Shown in pieces: positions 15,541 to 21,942 of a DNA stretch of 40,897 nt (the stretch's first letter is position 1; each line of letters starts with the position of its first letter). A model generated the notes under the pieces. That model saw only the letters and a program-made list of their open reading frames with translations, did no database searches and was not told where the DNA came from. The DNA is from a virus: positions 1 to 40,897 of IMG/VR virus record IMGVR_UViG_3300005435_000031; one strand, given 5' to 3'. The translations under genes were made by a program, and so were the position numbers.

Positions 15541-15576
15541 GTTTCGTCAACGCCTACTAGGAGGGCCTAGCGAAAC
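15541..15576 (-). repeat. 36-bp quasi-palindromic motif, copy 1 (inverted)
   Basis: This segment matches 18267-18302 in reverse complement at 31 of 36 positions. Both copies centre on CTCCTAGGAGG-like sequence and have GTTTCG or CGAAAC at the ends, so each copy is itself a near palindrome. The similarity stops sharply at both ends. The two copies bracket a 2.7-kb segment holding a winged-helix gene, a tRNA, a transposase and an XRE gene. It may be an operator shared by the XRE proteins, a recombination site or a transposon end. Confidence 0.75.
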
Positions 15577-15695
15577 TCGCCGTGGCCCGTGGGCTCGCGA
15601 GTTCGCCTAGGTCGGGAACCTGGCCGTACCCCGTCATCCGGAGCAGCGTACCCCAGGCATCGCGATCGGCTGTCGCCGTCCGCGGTCATTTTTGG

Positions 15696-15752
15696 CCACT
15701 TTCGGCCAAAGTGGGAACCCGGCCCGTTATCCGTCCCCGGTCTGGCTATTAT
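15696..15752 (+). promoter_or_regulatory. Operator-like palindrome and -10 box
   Basis: CCACTTT, five bases, then AAAGTGG form a perfect interrupted palindrome at 15696-15714. A good -10 sequence TATTAT lies at 15747-15752, 39 bases before the GTG of the winged-helix gene. No good -35 matches it, which suggests an activated promoter or one controlled by the palindrome-binding protein. The gene product downstream is itself a DNA-binding protein and is the simplest candidate regulator. Confidence 0.5.
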
Positions 15753-15790
15753 GTCGCTCGGTGTTTGCTGACCGACCGACAGGAGCCGAC

Positions 15791-16312
15791 GTGGACCCCT
15801 ATCAAGCGTGGCTCGCTCAGATGCCTCGGGAGTTCGTACGTAAGCGGATGGCCGAGATCAAGCAGCAGCTCGAAGACTTGCCCAGGGAGCTTGAGTTCCT
15901 TCAGAAGCTCGACGCCCTGCCCGTTCCCGGTCCGGGTCAAGCCCAGCGGTCGGTACCGCAGGAGACGCCAGCGCGTGAGACGCCGCGGCCCCCAGTTGCT
16001 GCCCGCCAGGCCGGTTCGGACACCGAGCGCCCCCGTCGGCGCCGCAAGTTGAGCCAGGAGCGCCAGGCGATCCTCGAAGCGGTCCGCCGACTGCGGCCTG
16101 ACGCTGGCCCTGCTGACGTGGCCCGCGAGACCGGCCAAGAGCTGGCCGCCGTCCAGAAGACGATGTCGCGGATGGCGAGAGCCGGTCAGCTCGTGCGAGC
16201 GGGCTACAGCCGCTATGACGTTCCCGCCGACGACGTTCCGCCCCATGACACGGGCACGACGCTCTTGGACACGTCATCGGCGAACGGGACCGAGGAGGCG
16301 ATCGCGCCATGA
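15791..16312 (+). CDS. Coiled-coil / winged-helix protein, 173 aa
   Basis: The GTG at 15791 is preceded by AGGAG at a normal distance. Residues 1-45 form a helical, coiled-coil-like segment (FVRKRMAEIKQQLEDLPREL). Residues 46-85 are a Pro/Ala/Arg-rich linker. Residues about 90-145 read as a winged helix (RQAILEAVRRLRPDAGPADV, then ELAAVQKTMSRMARAGQLVR), with a Thr/Ser/Asp-rich tail. It likely binds DNA as a dimer. It stands alone on the plus strand, followed by strong hairpins and a tRNA. Its own promoter region has an operator-like palindrome, so autoregulation is plausible. Confidence 0.72.
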   Translation: MDPYQAWLAQMPREFVRKRMAEIKQQLEDLPRELEFLQKLDALPVPGPGQAQRSVPQETPARETPRPPVAARQAGSDTERPRRRRKLSQERQAILEAVRRLRPDAGPADVARETGQELAAVQKTMSRMARAGQLVRAGYSRYDVPADDVPPHDTGTTLLDTSSANGTEEAIAP

Positions 16313-16507: not shown

Positions 16508-16592
16508 GCGCTCGTGGTGGAACTGGCATACACAGCCGCCTTCCAAGCGGCCGTCCTGACAGGGATTGCGGGTTCGAGTCCCGCCGAGCGCA
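16508..16592 (+). tRNA. Class II tRNA with anticodon UCC (Gly codon GGA)
   Basis: All stems are perfect. The acceptor GCGCTCG (16508-16514) pairs with CGAGCGC (16585-16591), with A as discriminator. The D stem is GTG/CAC with loop GAACTGGCATA. The anticodon stem GCCGC/GCGGC holds loop CTTCCAA, which reads UCC. The T arm is GCGGG-TTCGAGT-CCCGC. Between anticodon and T arms lies a 16-base variable region that forms a stem of about 5 bp (16553-16566). Long variable arms belong to tRNA-Leu, -Ser and -Tyr, not -Gly. The D arm and A73 look leucine-like. No CCA is encoded. Confidence 0.85.
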
Positions 16593-16631: not shown

Positions 16632-16741
16632 ACTTTCTGTCCGGTCCCGACCGTATAGTCGGTAACAGTCAGTTATCGGAAAAGGTTGACCCCGGCGACG
16701 TTGGCGCGTCCCGGGGTCTGGACCTCGGAGACAGAACCTCC
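16632..16741. other. Leader of the transposase gene
   Basis: TTGACA occurs at 16627-16632 and TATAGT at 16651-16656, but they are 18 bases apart only by a loose count that places -10 elsewhere; the direct distance is too long for a standard promoter. ACCG-tatagt-CGGT forms a small palindrome there. I could not identify a terminal inverted repeat of the insertion sequence in this stretch. Confidence 0.25.
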
Positions 16742-17905
16742 TTGGCCGCACGGAACGTAGCACGCAGCTCGGCATCCGCTGAGCTTTCAGACCTCCTCGA
16801 CTCGCCCGAGATCGCACGCTTGATCGCGGAGCTTGAGGCGACTCGTTGGACTGGCCGACCGGGCTATCCGGTGCGGGCGATGGTCGGCATGGCGCTCGCG
16901 AAGTCGATCTACTGCCTGCCGACTTGGACGCGGACAGTCGCGCTCGTGCGCGACCACGCTGGGCTGCGGCTCGCGATCGGCTGCCCGCTCGAAGAGGACG
17001 TGCCGTCTGTGTACGCGGCGTACCGCTTCTCAGCGAAGCTGCGCACGCACCGCGCGCTGTTGGACGAGTGCATCGCGGCGGTGGTCGGGCAGCTTCACGA
17101 GCGGCTGCCGCAGTACGGCCGCGATGTCGCGATCGACGCGTCCGACCTGCCCGCCTACGCGAACGGTCAGCGGTATCTCTCGAAGAATGGGCCTGAGCGC
17201 GAGCGGTTCTCTGACCCGGATGCGACGTGGGGGCACCGTTCGGCGGTCTCGACGCGCAGAGGCGGCGGCTTCTACGGCTACCGGCTCCATGCCGCCGTCT
17301 GCACCGCGACGGGGCTGCCGGTCGCGTGGGATGTTGCGCCCGCGCGCGAGCATGAGTCGAACTTCGTCACCGGCCTGCTCGACACCGCGCACGCTCGCGG
17401 CATGGCCGTCGAGACGTGCGCGATGGACAAGGGCTACGACAACAACCGCGTCTACGGCGAGTGCGTCGAGCGCGGCTGCCAGCCGATCGTTCCGTTGCGG
17501 ATGATGGCCGACGTGAGACGCGGCGCGCACCTGCCGCCGTCGTGCGAGCACGGCCCGTGGCGCTTCGCCGGCTCGGACTACAGACGCGGCGCTGCGAAGT
17601 GGCGCTGCCCGACCGGCGAGTGCTCGCCTGTCTCGACGTGGGTCAGGGCCGACCGCCTGCACCCGCTGATTCCGCGCGAGACGCTGCGCTGGAAGGCGCT
17701 GTACCGACGCCGCGCCGCGGTCGAGCGCGAGTTCGGCCGCCTCAAGCACGAGTGGGCAATACTGCCGCTGCGCGTGCGCGGCGTGGAGCGCGTGCGGCTC
17801 CACGCCGACCTCACGATCCTCGCGAAGCTCGGCTGCACGCTCATGCGAGCGCGCACCGTCACGGCGCGGCGTCAGCCGCTGCGCACGCCGACGTTGCGCT
17901 CGTAG
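16742..17905 (+). CDS. IS1182/IS5-like DDE transposase, 387 aa
   Basis: The N-terminal 110 residues match the DUF772-type domain (GYPVRAMVGMALAKSIYCLP, PSVYAAYRFSAKLR). The catalytic core follows: first Asp in DVAIDASDLPAYANG, second Asp in CAMDKGYDNNRVYGE, and Glu in RRRAAVEREFGRLKHEWAI, which also gives the Y-R-E-K signature of IS4-superfamily enzymes. A Cys/His loop (residues about 270-300) is family-typical. The frame is intact and near normal length, so it is probably active. It starts with TTG at 16742 with a weak ribosome site. Its 3' end overlaps an opposing XRE gene by 34 bp. Confidence 0.85.
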   Translation: MAARNVARSSASAELSDLLDSPEIARLIAELEATRWTGRPGYPVRAMVGMALAKSIYCLPTWTRTVALVRDHAGLRLAIGCPLEEDVPSVYAAYRFSAKLRTHRALLDECIAAVVGQLHERLPQYGRDVAIDASDLPAYANGQRYLSKNGPERERFSDPDATWGHRSAVSTRRGGGFYGYRLHAAVCTATGLPVAWDVAPAREHESNFVTGLLDTAHARGMAVETCAMDKGYDNNRVYGECVERGCQPIVPLRMMADVRRGAHLPPSCEHGPWRFAGSDYRRGAAKWRCPTGECSPVSTWVRADRLHPLIPRETLRWKALYRRRAAVEREFGRLKHEWAILPLRVRGVERVRLHADLTILAKLGCTLMRARTVTARRQPLRTPTLRS

Positions 17906-18147
17906 ACCGCGATCAGCTCCGAGAGGGGCAGGACCAGCCCGCCGGTCAGATAGACAAGCGTGCGCAGGGTTGGGTTGATCTCCCCGCGCTCGATAGCGCC
18001 GATGTAGTTGCGGTGCAAGCCGGCCTTGAAGCCAAGCCACTCCTGAGACAGCCCGCGACGCGCGCGCAGCTCACGCACGGCCGCGCCAAGCGCTCTGAGG
18101 TTCGGTGCGTCCGGATTCGCCCGCGCCGGGATAACCTGAGCCTGCAT
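17872..18147 (-). CDS. XRE-family transcriptional regulator A, 91 aa
   Basis: The helix-turn-helix covers residues about 18-72: LGAAVRELRARRGLSQEWLG, then GLHRNYIGAIERGEINPTLR. The start is taken at the ATG at 18147 because AGGAGGTA lies 9 bases upstream; the GTG at 18171 would put that ribosome site inside the gene. It is divergent from a second XRE gene with a similar HTH, and the 36-bp motif copy 2 lies between them. The 3' end overlaps the transposase gene tail to tail. It is likely a repressor of the shared control region. Confidence 0.85.
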   Translation of the reverse strand: MQAQVIPARANPDAPNLRALGAAVRELRARRGLSQEWLGFKAGLHRNYIGAIERGEINPTLRTLVYLTGGLVLPLSELIAVYERNVGVRSG

Positions 18148-18266
18148 GGGAGCTGATACCTCCTGTGCCACGGCCGGGGGGTGTTAGCGCACCGCCCCGG
18201 CCAACTTGTATGTGTGGCGGGCACCGTATGCTCGGCGCGTGCTCCCGACCAAGCGTTTCGCTAGCC
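18148..18266. promoter_or_regulatory. Divergent control region of two XRE genes
   Basis: This interval separates the start of regulator A from the 36-bp motif. It contains a direct repeat GTTTCGCTAG (one copy at 18255-18264, the next forming the left end of the motif at 18267). A short frame from GTG 18239 to TAG 18286 reads through both copies. A -10-like sequence for the minus strand is not clear. The layout is that of a small bistable or autoregulated switch. Confidence 0.4.
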
Positions 18267-18302
18267 GTTTCGCTAGACCCTCCTAGGAGGGTTTGACGGA
18301 AC
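18267..18302 (+). repeat. 36-bp quasi-palindromic motif, copy 2
   Basis: It is the inverted counterpart of 15541-15576 (31 of 36 identical). Its core ACCCTCCTAGGAGGGT at 18277-18292 is a perfect 16-bp palindrome. The AGGAGGG half could double as the ribosome site of the adjacent XRE gene B. An operator overlapping a ribosome site would couple DNA binding and translation control. Confidence 0.75.
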
Positions 18303-18303
18303 G

Positions 18304-18567
18304 ATTGGCGAAACGGTTGAGCCGTCGCCGCTCGTCCGTGACCGCCGCGCGCTCGCGACCGCCGTCAAAGAGCTGCGCGCACGCCGGGGCATGACACAGG
18401 AGGAGGTCGCCACCGCCGCAGGCGTCAGCCGCGGCTACCTCGGAGAGCTGGAACAAGGCCGACGCCGACCATCCTTCGAGGGCATCGTGCGCGTCGCTCG
18501 CGCGCTCGACGTCGAACTGGTCGAGCTGATCCAGACCTACGAAGCCCGCCTGCGCGACGGGCGCTGA
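18304..18567 (+). CDS. XRE-family regulator B with no standard start codon
   Basis: The HTH is clear: LATAVKELRARRGMTQEEVA, then GVSRGYLGELEQGRRRPSFE, with a C-terminal helix (LDVELVELIQTYEARLRDG). It is paralogous to regulator A. The frame is open from 18277 but holds no ATG, GTG or TTG before the HTH; the first ATG (18391) would remove helix 1. I list the ATT at 18304, 12 bases after AGGAGGG, as the only recognised rare start. Alternatives are a non-standard start, a frameshift from the upstream GTG 18239 frame, or a gene that lost its start when the region was rearranged. Confidence 0.65.
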   Translation: MGETVEPSPLVRDRRALATAVKELRARRGMTQEEVATAAGVSRGYLGELEQGRRRPSFEGIVRVARALDVELVELIQTYEARLRDGR

Positions 18568-21501: not shown

Positions 21502-21942
21502 GCGGGACGATGGCGGCGGGCAGACTCGAACTGCCTCCTCCGGGATATGAGCCCGGCGTGGTACCCCTTCCACTACGCCGCAACGGAGCGTCGGCTGAAG
21601 GCCAGAGGCCCCACACCGACACGAAGGCAAGCCCGGCGCATCGCCCCGAAGGACGATGGCCGGGTCGAGATGAGGGCCGGGCCGGCAATGGCTCGCCGTG
21701 GCCGACGGCGAGGTGTCGAGGTCTCCCACGACTGACGGTGATCCCGGCGCTACGCCGAGCAGTAGTCCGCCGAGAAAGACTCGGGGCCTGCCAGTCGGCG
21801 CGATCATCCACGTGATAGCGAGCGCTTGCGTGACGAACTGAACAGCGCGGCCATACATGCTTGTGCGAACCAACAGGACGTCCATCGCGACAGCGAGCGG
21901 CACAAGCACCAGCGGCCACCATGTGATGCGGGTGCCCGCCAT
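21478..21942 (-). CDS. Small membrane protein; reading frame runs through the tRNA gene
   Basis: The ATG at 21942 overlaps the preceding stop region. The N-terminal 70 residues hold about three hydrophobic helices (WWPLVLVPLAVAMDVLLV, FVTQALAITWMIAP, FLGGLLLGVAPG), which could be a holin-like or other small membrane protein. The next 85 residues look like non-coding translation (Cys, Pro and Arg scattered) and overlap the whole tRNA-Met. The true stop may have been lost by a frameshift near 21720, or the tail may be real. I trust only the hydrophobic part. Confidence 0.45.
   Translation of the reverse strand: MAGTRITWWPLVLVPLAVAMDVLLVRTSMYGRAVQFVTQALAITWMIAPTGRPRVFLGGLLLGVAPGSPSVVGDLDTSPSATASHCRPGPHLDPAIVLRGDAPGLPSCRCGASGLQPTLRCGVVEGVPRRAHIPEEAVRVCPPPSSRAPAVPRL
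21511..21582 (-). tRNA. tRNA with CAU anticodon, initiator-like (Met)
   Basis: The acceptor 5' strand TGCGGCG pairs with CGCCGCC except for the first pair (T1-C72). The D arm is GTGG-AAGGGGTA-CCAC. The anticodon arm CCGGG-CTCATAT-CCCGG has three consecutive G-C pairs next to the loop. The T arm is GGCAG-TTCGAGT-CTGCC, and the discriminator is A. An unpaired 1-72 position and the three G-C pairs are hallmarks of bacterial initiator tRNA. Position 11-24 is T-A, which is elongator-like, so the identity is mixed. Ile2 with a modified CAU is a further alternative. No CCA is encoded. Confidence 0.85.

What the first reader, a model, noticed from the sequence alone, without database searches (positions are those of the whole stretch)
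16508..16592. Leucine-type (class II) tRNA body carrying a glycine UCC anticodon
All helices are perfect, yet the 16-base variable arm, the GAACTGGCATA D-loop and A73 fit tRNA-Leu, while the anticodon loop CTTCCAA is the standard tRNA-Gly(UCC) loop. Bacterial LeuRS does not read the anticodon, so this RNA might deliver Leu (or be a Ser acceptor) at GGA codons. It may be a recoding tRNA, a decoy or a fragment donor. It lies in the accessory island, behind a structured RNA.
Basis: partly seen in the sequence, partly recalled or inferred. Interest (0 to 1): 0.78.

Follow-up and report, generated by a model that had tools for sequence, protein, structure and literature searches.

The report
Phage leucine tRNA with glycine anticodon
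A soil phage carries an intact transfer RNA that is built to be loaded with leucine but reads a glycine codon; similar mismatched tRNAs turn up in unrelated phages, so it could make the host slip leucine in where glycine belongs, but no such effect has been shown.

Summary
Window 16508-16592(+) is a complete class II tRNA: 20 of 20 helix pairs form, A73 is present, and the anticodon is UCC in the loop CUUCCAA. The body is leucine-type. It scores 75.0 bits on a leucine model built here, within the range of held-out cognate phage tRNA-Leu (72-89 bits). Genuine tRNA-Gly(UCC) scores 34 and 39. Its D-arm occurs in 32 other viral contigs, always with a leucine anticodon. The bacterial leucine determinants A73, A15-U48, G18G19 and A20a are present. 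The glycine determinants G1-C72, C2-G71, C35 and C36 are present, but bacterial U73 is not.

The same combination (leucine body, UCC, A73) occurs in four other viral lineages and a Hyphomonas bin. Leucine-type tRNAs with non-leucine anticodons are 3 of about 123 in viral contigs and 0 of about 1,090 in 398 Pseudomonadota genomes.

GGA is not reassigned: GGA codons in the phage's conserved genes align with glycine in relatives. The best reading is a missense tRNA-Leu(UCC), leucylated by host LeuRS and at most a low-level Gly-to-Leu mistranslator, like nematode nev-tRNA-Gly(CCC). Charging, expression and benefit are not shown, and the phage relatives sampled lack it.

The parts
16508..16592 (+). 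class II tRNA gene, leucine-type body, anticodon UCC (reads GGA, GGG by wobble), no encoded CCA
16508..16514 (+). acceptor stem 5' strand GCGCTCG (pairs 7/7 with 16585-16591; G1-C72, C2-G71, G3-C70)
16517..16533 (+). D-arm GTG-GAACTGGCATA-CAC with A15, G18G19, A20a: leucine type; same D-arm carries only leucine anticodons in 32 other viral contigs
16535..16551 (+). anticodon arm GCCGC-CTTCCAA-GCGGC (5/5 pairs); anticodon UCC at 16542-16544; loop plus two closing pairs (GCCTTCCAAGC) equal tRNA-Gly(UCC)
16552..16567 (+). variable arm CGTCCTGACAGGGATT, 16 nt, ending in U48 (A15-U48 Levitt pair)
16568..16584 (+). T-arm GCGGG-TTCGAGT-CCCGC (5/5 pairs)
16592..16592 (+). discriminator A73 (leucine determinant; bacterial glycine would be U73, serine G73)
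   Evidence: PMC9976931
16313..16440 (+). two strong GC-rich hairpins downstream of ORF 15692-16312, upstream of the tRNA (probable terminator/processing hairpins)
   Evidence: z -4.6
15692..16312 (+). small ORF (206 aa) upstream on the same strand; weak match to phage transcriptional regulators
16742..17905 (+). DDE_Tnp_1 transposase ORF downstream; relatives in other viral contigs do not carry this tRNA

Best explanation
It is a phage-borne tRNA-Leu whose anticodon has become UCC: a missense (dual-identity) tRNA, tRNA-Leu(UCC). After host processing and CCA addition, the host LeuRS, which in E. coli does not read the anticodon, should charge it with leucine. EF-Tu should bring it to GGA codons (and GGG by wobble), where it competes with the host's ordinary tRNA-Gly(UCC). 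The result would be low-level Gly-to-Leu mistranslation, not reassignment. Shown: the gene, its predicted fold, its leucine-type body, its anticodon, its recurrence, and that GGA still means glycine in the phage's genes. Inferred: expression, leucylation, use by the ribosome, and any benefit.
For: Leucine model score 75.0, inside the cognate range; class I tRNA-Gly(UCC) 34.3 and 38.7. A73, A15-U48, G18G19 and A20a present; in 160 distinct leucine-anticodon tRNAs parsed here A73 is 160/160, A15-U48 158/160, A20a 156/160. These are the published E. coli leucine determinants, and the anticodon is not one (PMC9976931). All 32 other viral tRNAs with this D-arm are leucine. Closest tRNAs found are phage tRNA-Leu(UAA) at about 80% identity; class I Gly 59-62%. 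The combination recurs with A73 in viral contigs L009, L010/L011, L012 and L342 and in Hyphomonas L016. In contrast, 25 of 25 leucine-like class II tRNAs with the Asn anticodon GUU carry G73, an Asn determinant, so phages can switch the discriminator, but the UCC ones have not. The in vitro precedent is nematode nev-tRNA-Gly(CCC), charged only with leucine (PMC4300185).
Against: No expression data; no sigma-70-like promoter match, though that scan suits actinobacteria poorly. Partial contigs of TerL relatives lack it. The phage's own conserved genes use GGA at invariant glycines, so efficient Leu insertion would harm it. The nev-tRNA precedent gave no detectable mistranslation in vivo (PMC4300185). 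G1-C72, C2-G71, C35 and C36 could also let GlyRS act, so some glycylation is possible.
Confidence: 0.5

Rival explanations
1. An unexpressed or neutral relic: a phage tRNA-Leu gene that lost its use and happened to mutate in the anticodon, without consequence because it is not transcribed.
For: Absent from the TerL relatives sampled; no promoter found; lone tRNA between the control-region genes. Two of the other UCC tRNAs (L009, L016) have a 31-39 mismatch and NaphS2 L024 has a frayed acceptor. Degenerate Leu/UCC-like remnants exist in several prophage contigs (L002-L008, L013).
Against: All 20 pairs and all tertiary bases are intact and the Rfam score is in the normal range. The departures from tRNA-Leu(UAA) in the anticodon arm are the two anticodon bases plus paired (compensated) stem changes. 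UCC with A73 recurs in unrelated lineages.
Confidence: 0.22
2. A converted glycine tRNA: GlyRS charges it through G1-C72, C2-G71, C35 and C36, so it simply supplies Gly-tRNA for GGA on an unusual class II frame.
For: Those determinants, plus G10 and C50-G64 noted for Thermus GlyRS, are present in the window tRNA (PMC9976931). Loop and closing pairs equal tRNA-Gly(UCC). Class II tRNAs that look switched to Asn identity exist in phages.
Against: Bacterial glycine discriminator U73 is absent; all UCC members keep A73 (L342). Two of the others lack C2-G71. A full leucine set is present, so LeuRS would compete.
Confidence: 0.15
3. A decoy: the Gly(UCC) anticodon loop on a foreign body baits or titrates a tRNA-Gly-directed anticodon nuclease of a defence system or toxin.
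For: Phage tRNAs are proposed to counter tRNA-targeting defences (PMC10264068). The exact Gly loop is kept.
Against: No nuclease or repair genes were seen nearby; a PADLOC scan of ten window proteins found only a Fic-like protein. Decoys would not need a perfect leucine frame.
Confidence: 0.08
4. A serine-accepting class II tRNA.
For: Class II frame; SerRS ignores the anticodon.
Against: A73, A15-U48 and C2-G71; serine-type controls here carry G73 and G15-C48; C2-G71 is an antideterminant against SerRS in E. coli tRNA-Leu (PMC9976931).
Confidence: 0.02

Closest known systems
Nematode nev-tRNA-Gly(CCC) / nev-tRNA-Ile(UAU) (PMC4300185)
   Same: Leucine-type V-arm tRNA with a glycine anticodon, present beside normal tRNA-Gly; predicted (there: shown in vitro) to be charged with leucine.
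   Different: Eukaryotic nuclear genes, anticodon CCC; here a phage gene, anticodon UCC, bacterial leucine determinants, no charging data.
Bacterial tRNA-ProX family with ProRSx (Streptomyces; PMC10365949)
   Same: Canonical body of one amino acid with another's anticodon, giving missense insertion.
   Different: Proline body; found next to a dedicated synthetase. No aminoacyl-tRNA synthetase domain of the two families sought was found in this window.
Allo-tRNAs (Mukai 2017, as reviewed in PMC7609411)
   Same: Class II-like bacterial tRNAs with many unrelated anticodons; amino acid set by the body.
   Different: Allo-tRNAs have 8/4 or 9/3 acceptor branches and Ser/Ala identity; this one is 7/5 and leucine-type.
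Ordinary phage-encoded tRNA-Leu(UAA)
   Same: D-arm, T-arm, V-arm, A73; about 80% identity.
   Different: Anticodon UCC instead of UAA.

Membership tests
bacterial/phage tRNA-Leu (body) | A73 discriminator | tested here: met
bacterial/phage tRNA-Leu (body) | A15-U48, G18G19, A20a and class II V-arm | tested here: met
   determinants from PMC9976931
bacterial/phage tRNA-Leu (body) | scores with cognate leucine tRNAs on a leucine model | tested here: met
   75.0 bits, cognates 72-89
bacterial/phage tRNA-Leu (body) | leucine anticodon with A35 | tested here: not met
   UCC; A35 is invariant in the 30 model sequences
bacterial tRNA-Gly | C35 and C36 with G1-C72 and C2-G71 | tested here: met
bacterial tRNA-Gly | U73 discriminator | tested here: not met
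   A73; U73 in bacterial tRNA-Gly per PMC9976931
bacterial tRNA-Gly | class I short variable loop | tested here: not met
   16-nt V region
tRNA-Ser | G73 and G15-C48 | tested here: not met
   A73, A15-U48; serine controls G73/G15-C48
nev-tRNA-type missense tRNA | charged with leucine despite the glycine anticodon | not testable with these tools
   needs an aminoacylation assay
tRNA-ProX-type dedicated mistranslation pair | adjacent matching synthetase | tested here: not met
   no PF00133 or PF00587 match in the window
allo-tRNA | 8/4 or 9/3 acceptor branch | tested here: not met
   7/5

The most novel reading that the evidence does not exclude
Phages hold a recurrent class of anticodon-swapped class II tRNAs on the leucine frame. 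Some keep leucine identity (UCC and stop anticodons, A73) and act as genuine missense or nonsense mistranslators. Others switch discriminator with the anticodon (Asn G73, His C73). tRNA-Leu(UCC) would be a selected Gly-to-Leu mistranslator, perhaps used in lysogeny or against the host.
Probability: 0.25. Interest if true: 0.85.

Novelty: new variant of a known kind. Interest (0 to 1): 0.6.

Why it matters
Genome annotation names tRNAs by anticodon, so such mismatched tRNAs are filed as ordinary tRNA-Gly and missed. If they are charged by body identity, phages carry ready-made missense tRNAs. Whether viruses use programmed mistranslation then becomes directly testable by charging assays and proteomics. 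The pattern (UCC keeps A73, Asn GUU switches to G73) offers natural cases of both incomplete and completed tRNA identity change.

Tried and rejected
Serine acceptor: rejected on A73, A15-U48 and C2-G71. GGA reassignment: rejected. In TerL, portal, protease and two capsid genes, GGA columns align mostly with Gly in relatives; Leu appears in only 2 aligned cells, both at portal residue 109. tRNA as cargo of the downstream transposase: no terminal inverted repeats found and related transposases lack it. Conservation in the phage lineage: contigs of TerL relatives (41-60% identity, partial) have no tRNA or only Arg, Tyr or Glu tRNAs. Named phages: BLAST of the tRNA hits only three tRNA-Leu genes. 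Genome-wide UCC pattern: most of 32 hits are coding-sequence chance matches. Literature searches found no report of leucine-bodied phage tRNAs with sense anticodons; the library lacks most subscription papers. Host lineage: not determined; TerL resembles actinophage terminases at about 40% identity.

Full report
What is there. The window is a whole linear IMG/VR record of 40,897 bases. Its terminase, portal, protease and capsid genes lie on the minus strand left of 14.6 kb; Rho lies at the right end. At 16508-16592 on the plus strand ARAGORN reports tRNA-Gly(tcc) and Rfam a tRNA of 54.4 bits. Parsing gives 7/7 acceptor, 3/3 D, 5/5 anticodon and 5/5 T pairs, a 16-nt variable region, loop CTTCCAA, A73 and no encoded CCA. 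Cognate phage tRNA-Leu with the same D-arm score about 42-56 bits on the same Rfam model, so the gene does not score as a pseudogene.

The body is leucine. The D-arm GGTGGAACTGGCATACAC occurs in 32 other viral contigs, and all 32 carry a leucine anticodon. A covariance model from 30 viral tRNA-Leu (20 of 23 pairs covary) gives the window tRNA 75.0 bits. Held-out cognate tRNA-Leu score 72-89 bits. Two genuine class I tRNA-Gly(UCC) genes found here score 34.3 and 38.7 bits. The published E. coli leucine determinants are A73, A15-U48, G18G19 and A20a; the anticodon and the long variable arm are not determinants (PMC9976931). Of the glycine set, G1-C72, C2-G71, C35 and C36 are present but U73 is not. 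Serine identity is contradicted by A73, A15-U48 and C2-G71.

The anticodon change. The commonest viral leucine loop is CTTAAAA (66 of 160); CTTCCAA differs from it exactly at positions 35 and 36. The best full-length matches are phage tRNA-Leu(UAA) at about 80% identity, with paired changes in the anticodon stem; class I tRNA-Gly matches at 59-62%. In the window tRNA the loop and its two closing pairs equal tRNA-Gly(UCC), so transfer of a Gly anticodon tip is possible too. L010 keeps the leucine closing pair, which suggests point changes there.

Recurrence. Leucine-type tRNAs with UCC and A73 occur in viral contigs L009, L010/L011 (same tRNA in two metagenomes), L012 and L342, and in a Hyphomonas bin (L016), all in different sequence contexts. 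NaphS2 L024 has one with a frayed acceptor. The Hyphomonas and NaphS2 genomes also have a normal class I tRNA-Gly(UCC). In a sample of about 123 such viral tRNAs not chosen by anticodon, 3 were non-leucine, two of them called by ARAGORN. In 398 Pseudomonadota genomes there were none, against 2.7 matches per genome for any anticodon in 30 of them; Fisher p = 0.001. The comparison is limited by one phylum and one pattern.

Two kinds of swap. In the set parsed, 25 of 25 leucine-like tRNAs with the Asn anticodon GUU have G73 and 2 of 2 with His GUG have C73. Five of five UCC, 6 of 6 UUA and 2 of 2 CUA keep A73. In the first group the discriminator moved with the anticodon; in the second the leucine determinants stayed. 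This is inference from sequence.

No recoding. In TerL, portal, protease and two capsid proteins, GGA codons align mostly with glycine in relatives, including invariant positions such as TerL 388; leucine appears in two aligned cells at one portal site. GGA is 75 of 616 glycine codons in the genes examined. So GGA means glycine to this phage, and the tRNA can be at most a minor competitor.

Setting. The tRNA stands alone between a small regulator-like ORF (15692-16312) and a DDE transposase ORF (16742-17905), behind two strong hairpins. Operator-like palindromes lie at 15541-15576 and 18250-18319 next to an HTH repressor. No synthetase domain was found with the two families sought. Partial contigs of TerL relatives lack the tRNA, so it appears lineage-restricted.

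How it most likely works. It is transcribed, matured and CCA-tailed by the host, leucylated by host LeuRS, and used rarely at GGA. Every step after the gene itself is inferred. The nearest tested case, nematode nev-tRNA-Gly(CCC), is leucylated in vitro yet gives no detectable misincorporation in vivo (PMC4300185). The nearest bacterial case, tRNA-ProX, does mistranslate and is encoded next to a partner synthetase (PMC10365949). Allo-tRNAs show that bacterial class II frames with foreign anticodons are charged by body (PMC7609411). No report of leucine-bodied phage tRNAs with sense anticodons was found in the searchable library, which does not hold most subscription papers.

Noticed in passing
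L056, L059, L077, L085, L096, L102, L105, L110, L117, L119, L135, L146, L150, L151, L155, L156, L161, L210: A family of viral tRNA-like elements with constant leucine-type acceptor, D-arm and T-arm (AGTCAGG...GGCGGAATTGGTAGACGC ... ACAGGTTCGAATCCTGTCCTGACTA), but with the anticodon and variable regions replaced by unrelated sequence, often with its own hairpin.
   Followed up: no
L061, L062, L073, L081, L107 and about 20 others: Class II tRNAs with leucine-like D-arm, anticodon GUU and G73 in 25 of 25 distinct viral examples; relatives in Brevundimonas giant phages are annotated plain tRNA-Asn.
   Followed up: partly
window 21509-21583 (-): Second tRNA, Met(CAT), with a U1-C72 mismatch and three G-C pairs at the base of the anticodon loop, as in initiator tRNAs; an initiator-like tRNA in a viral contig.
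   Followed up: no
L002-L008, L013: A conserved degenerate leucine/UCC-like tRNA remnant (TGATTACTGTGGTGGAATAGGTAAACGCACTTGACTTCCAA...) in many prophage contigs, with a broken 3' half; no match in named phages.
   Followed up: partly
window 16690-16745 and upstream of the transposase in L336, L337, L339, L340: A conserved GC-rich hairpin leader (GACCCC...GGGGTC..GGACC..) directly before the DDE transposase start codon in related viral transposases.
   Followed up: no
window 15541-15576 and 18250-18319: Operator-like palindromes sharing GTTTCGCTAG and related CCTCCTAGGAGG cores flank the region with the HTH repressor (17872-18171); similar motifs occur in L336, L339 and L340.
   Followed up: partly
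L337/L338 2640-2714: tRNA with Ser anticodon GCT on a class I (short variable loop) body upstream of a related transposase: another body/anticodon mismatch.
   Followed up: no
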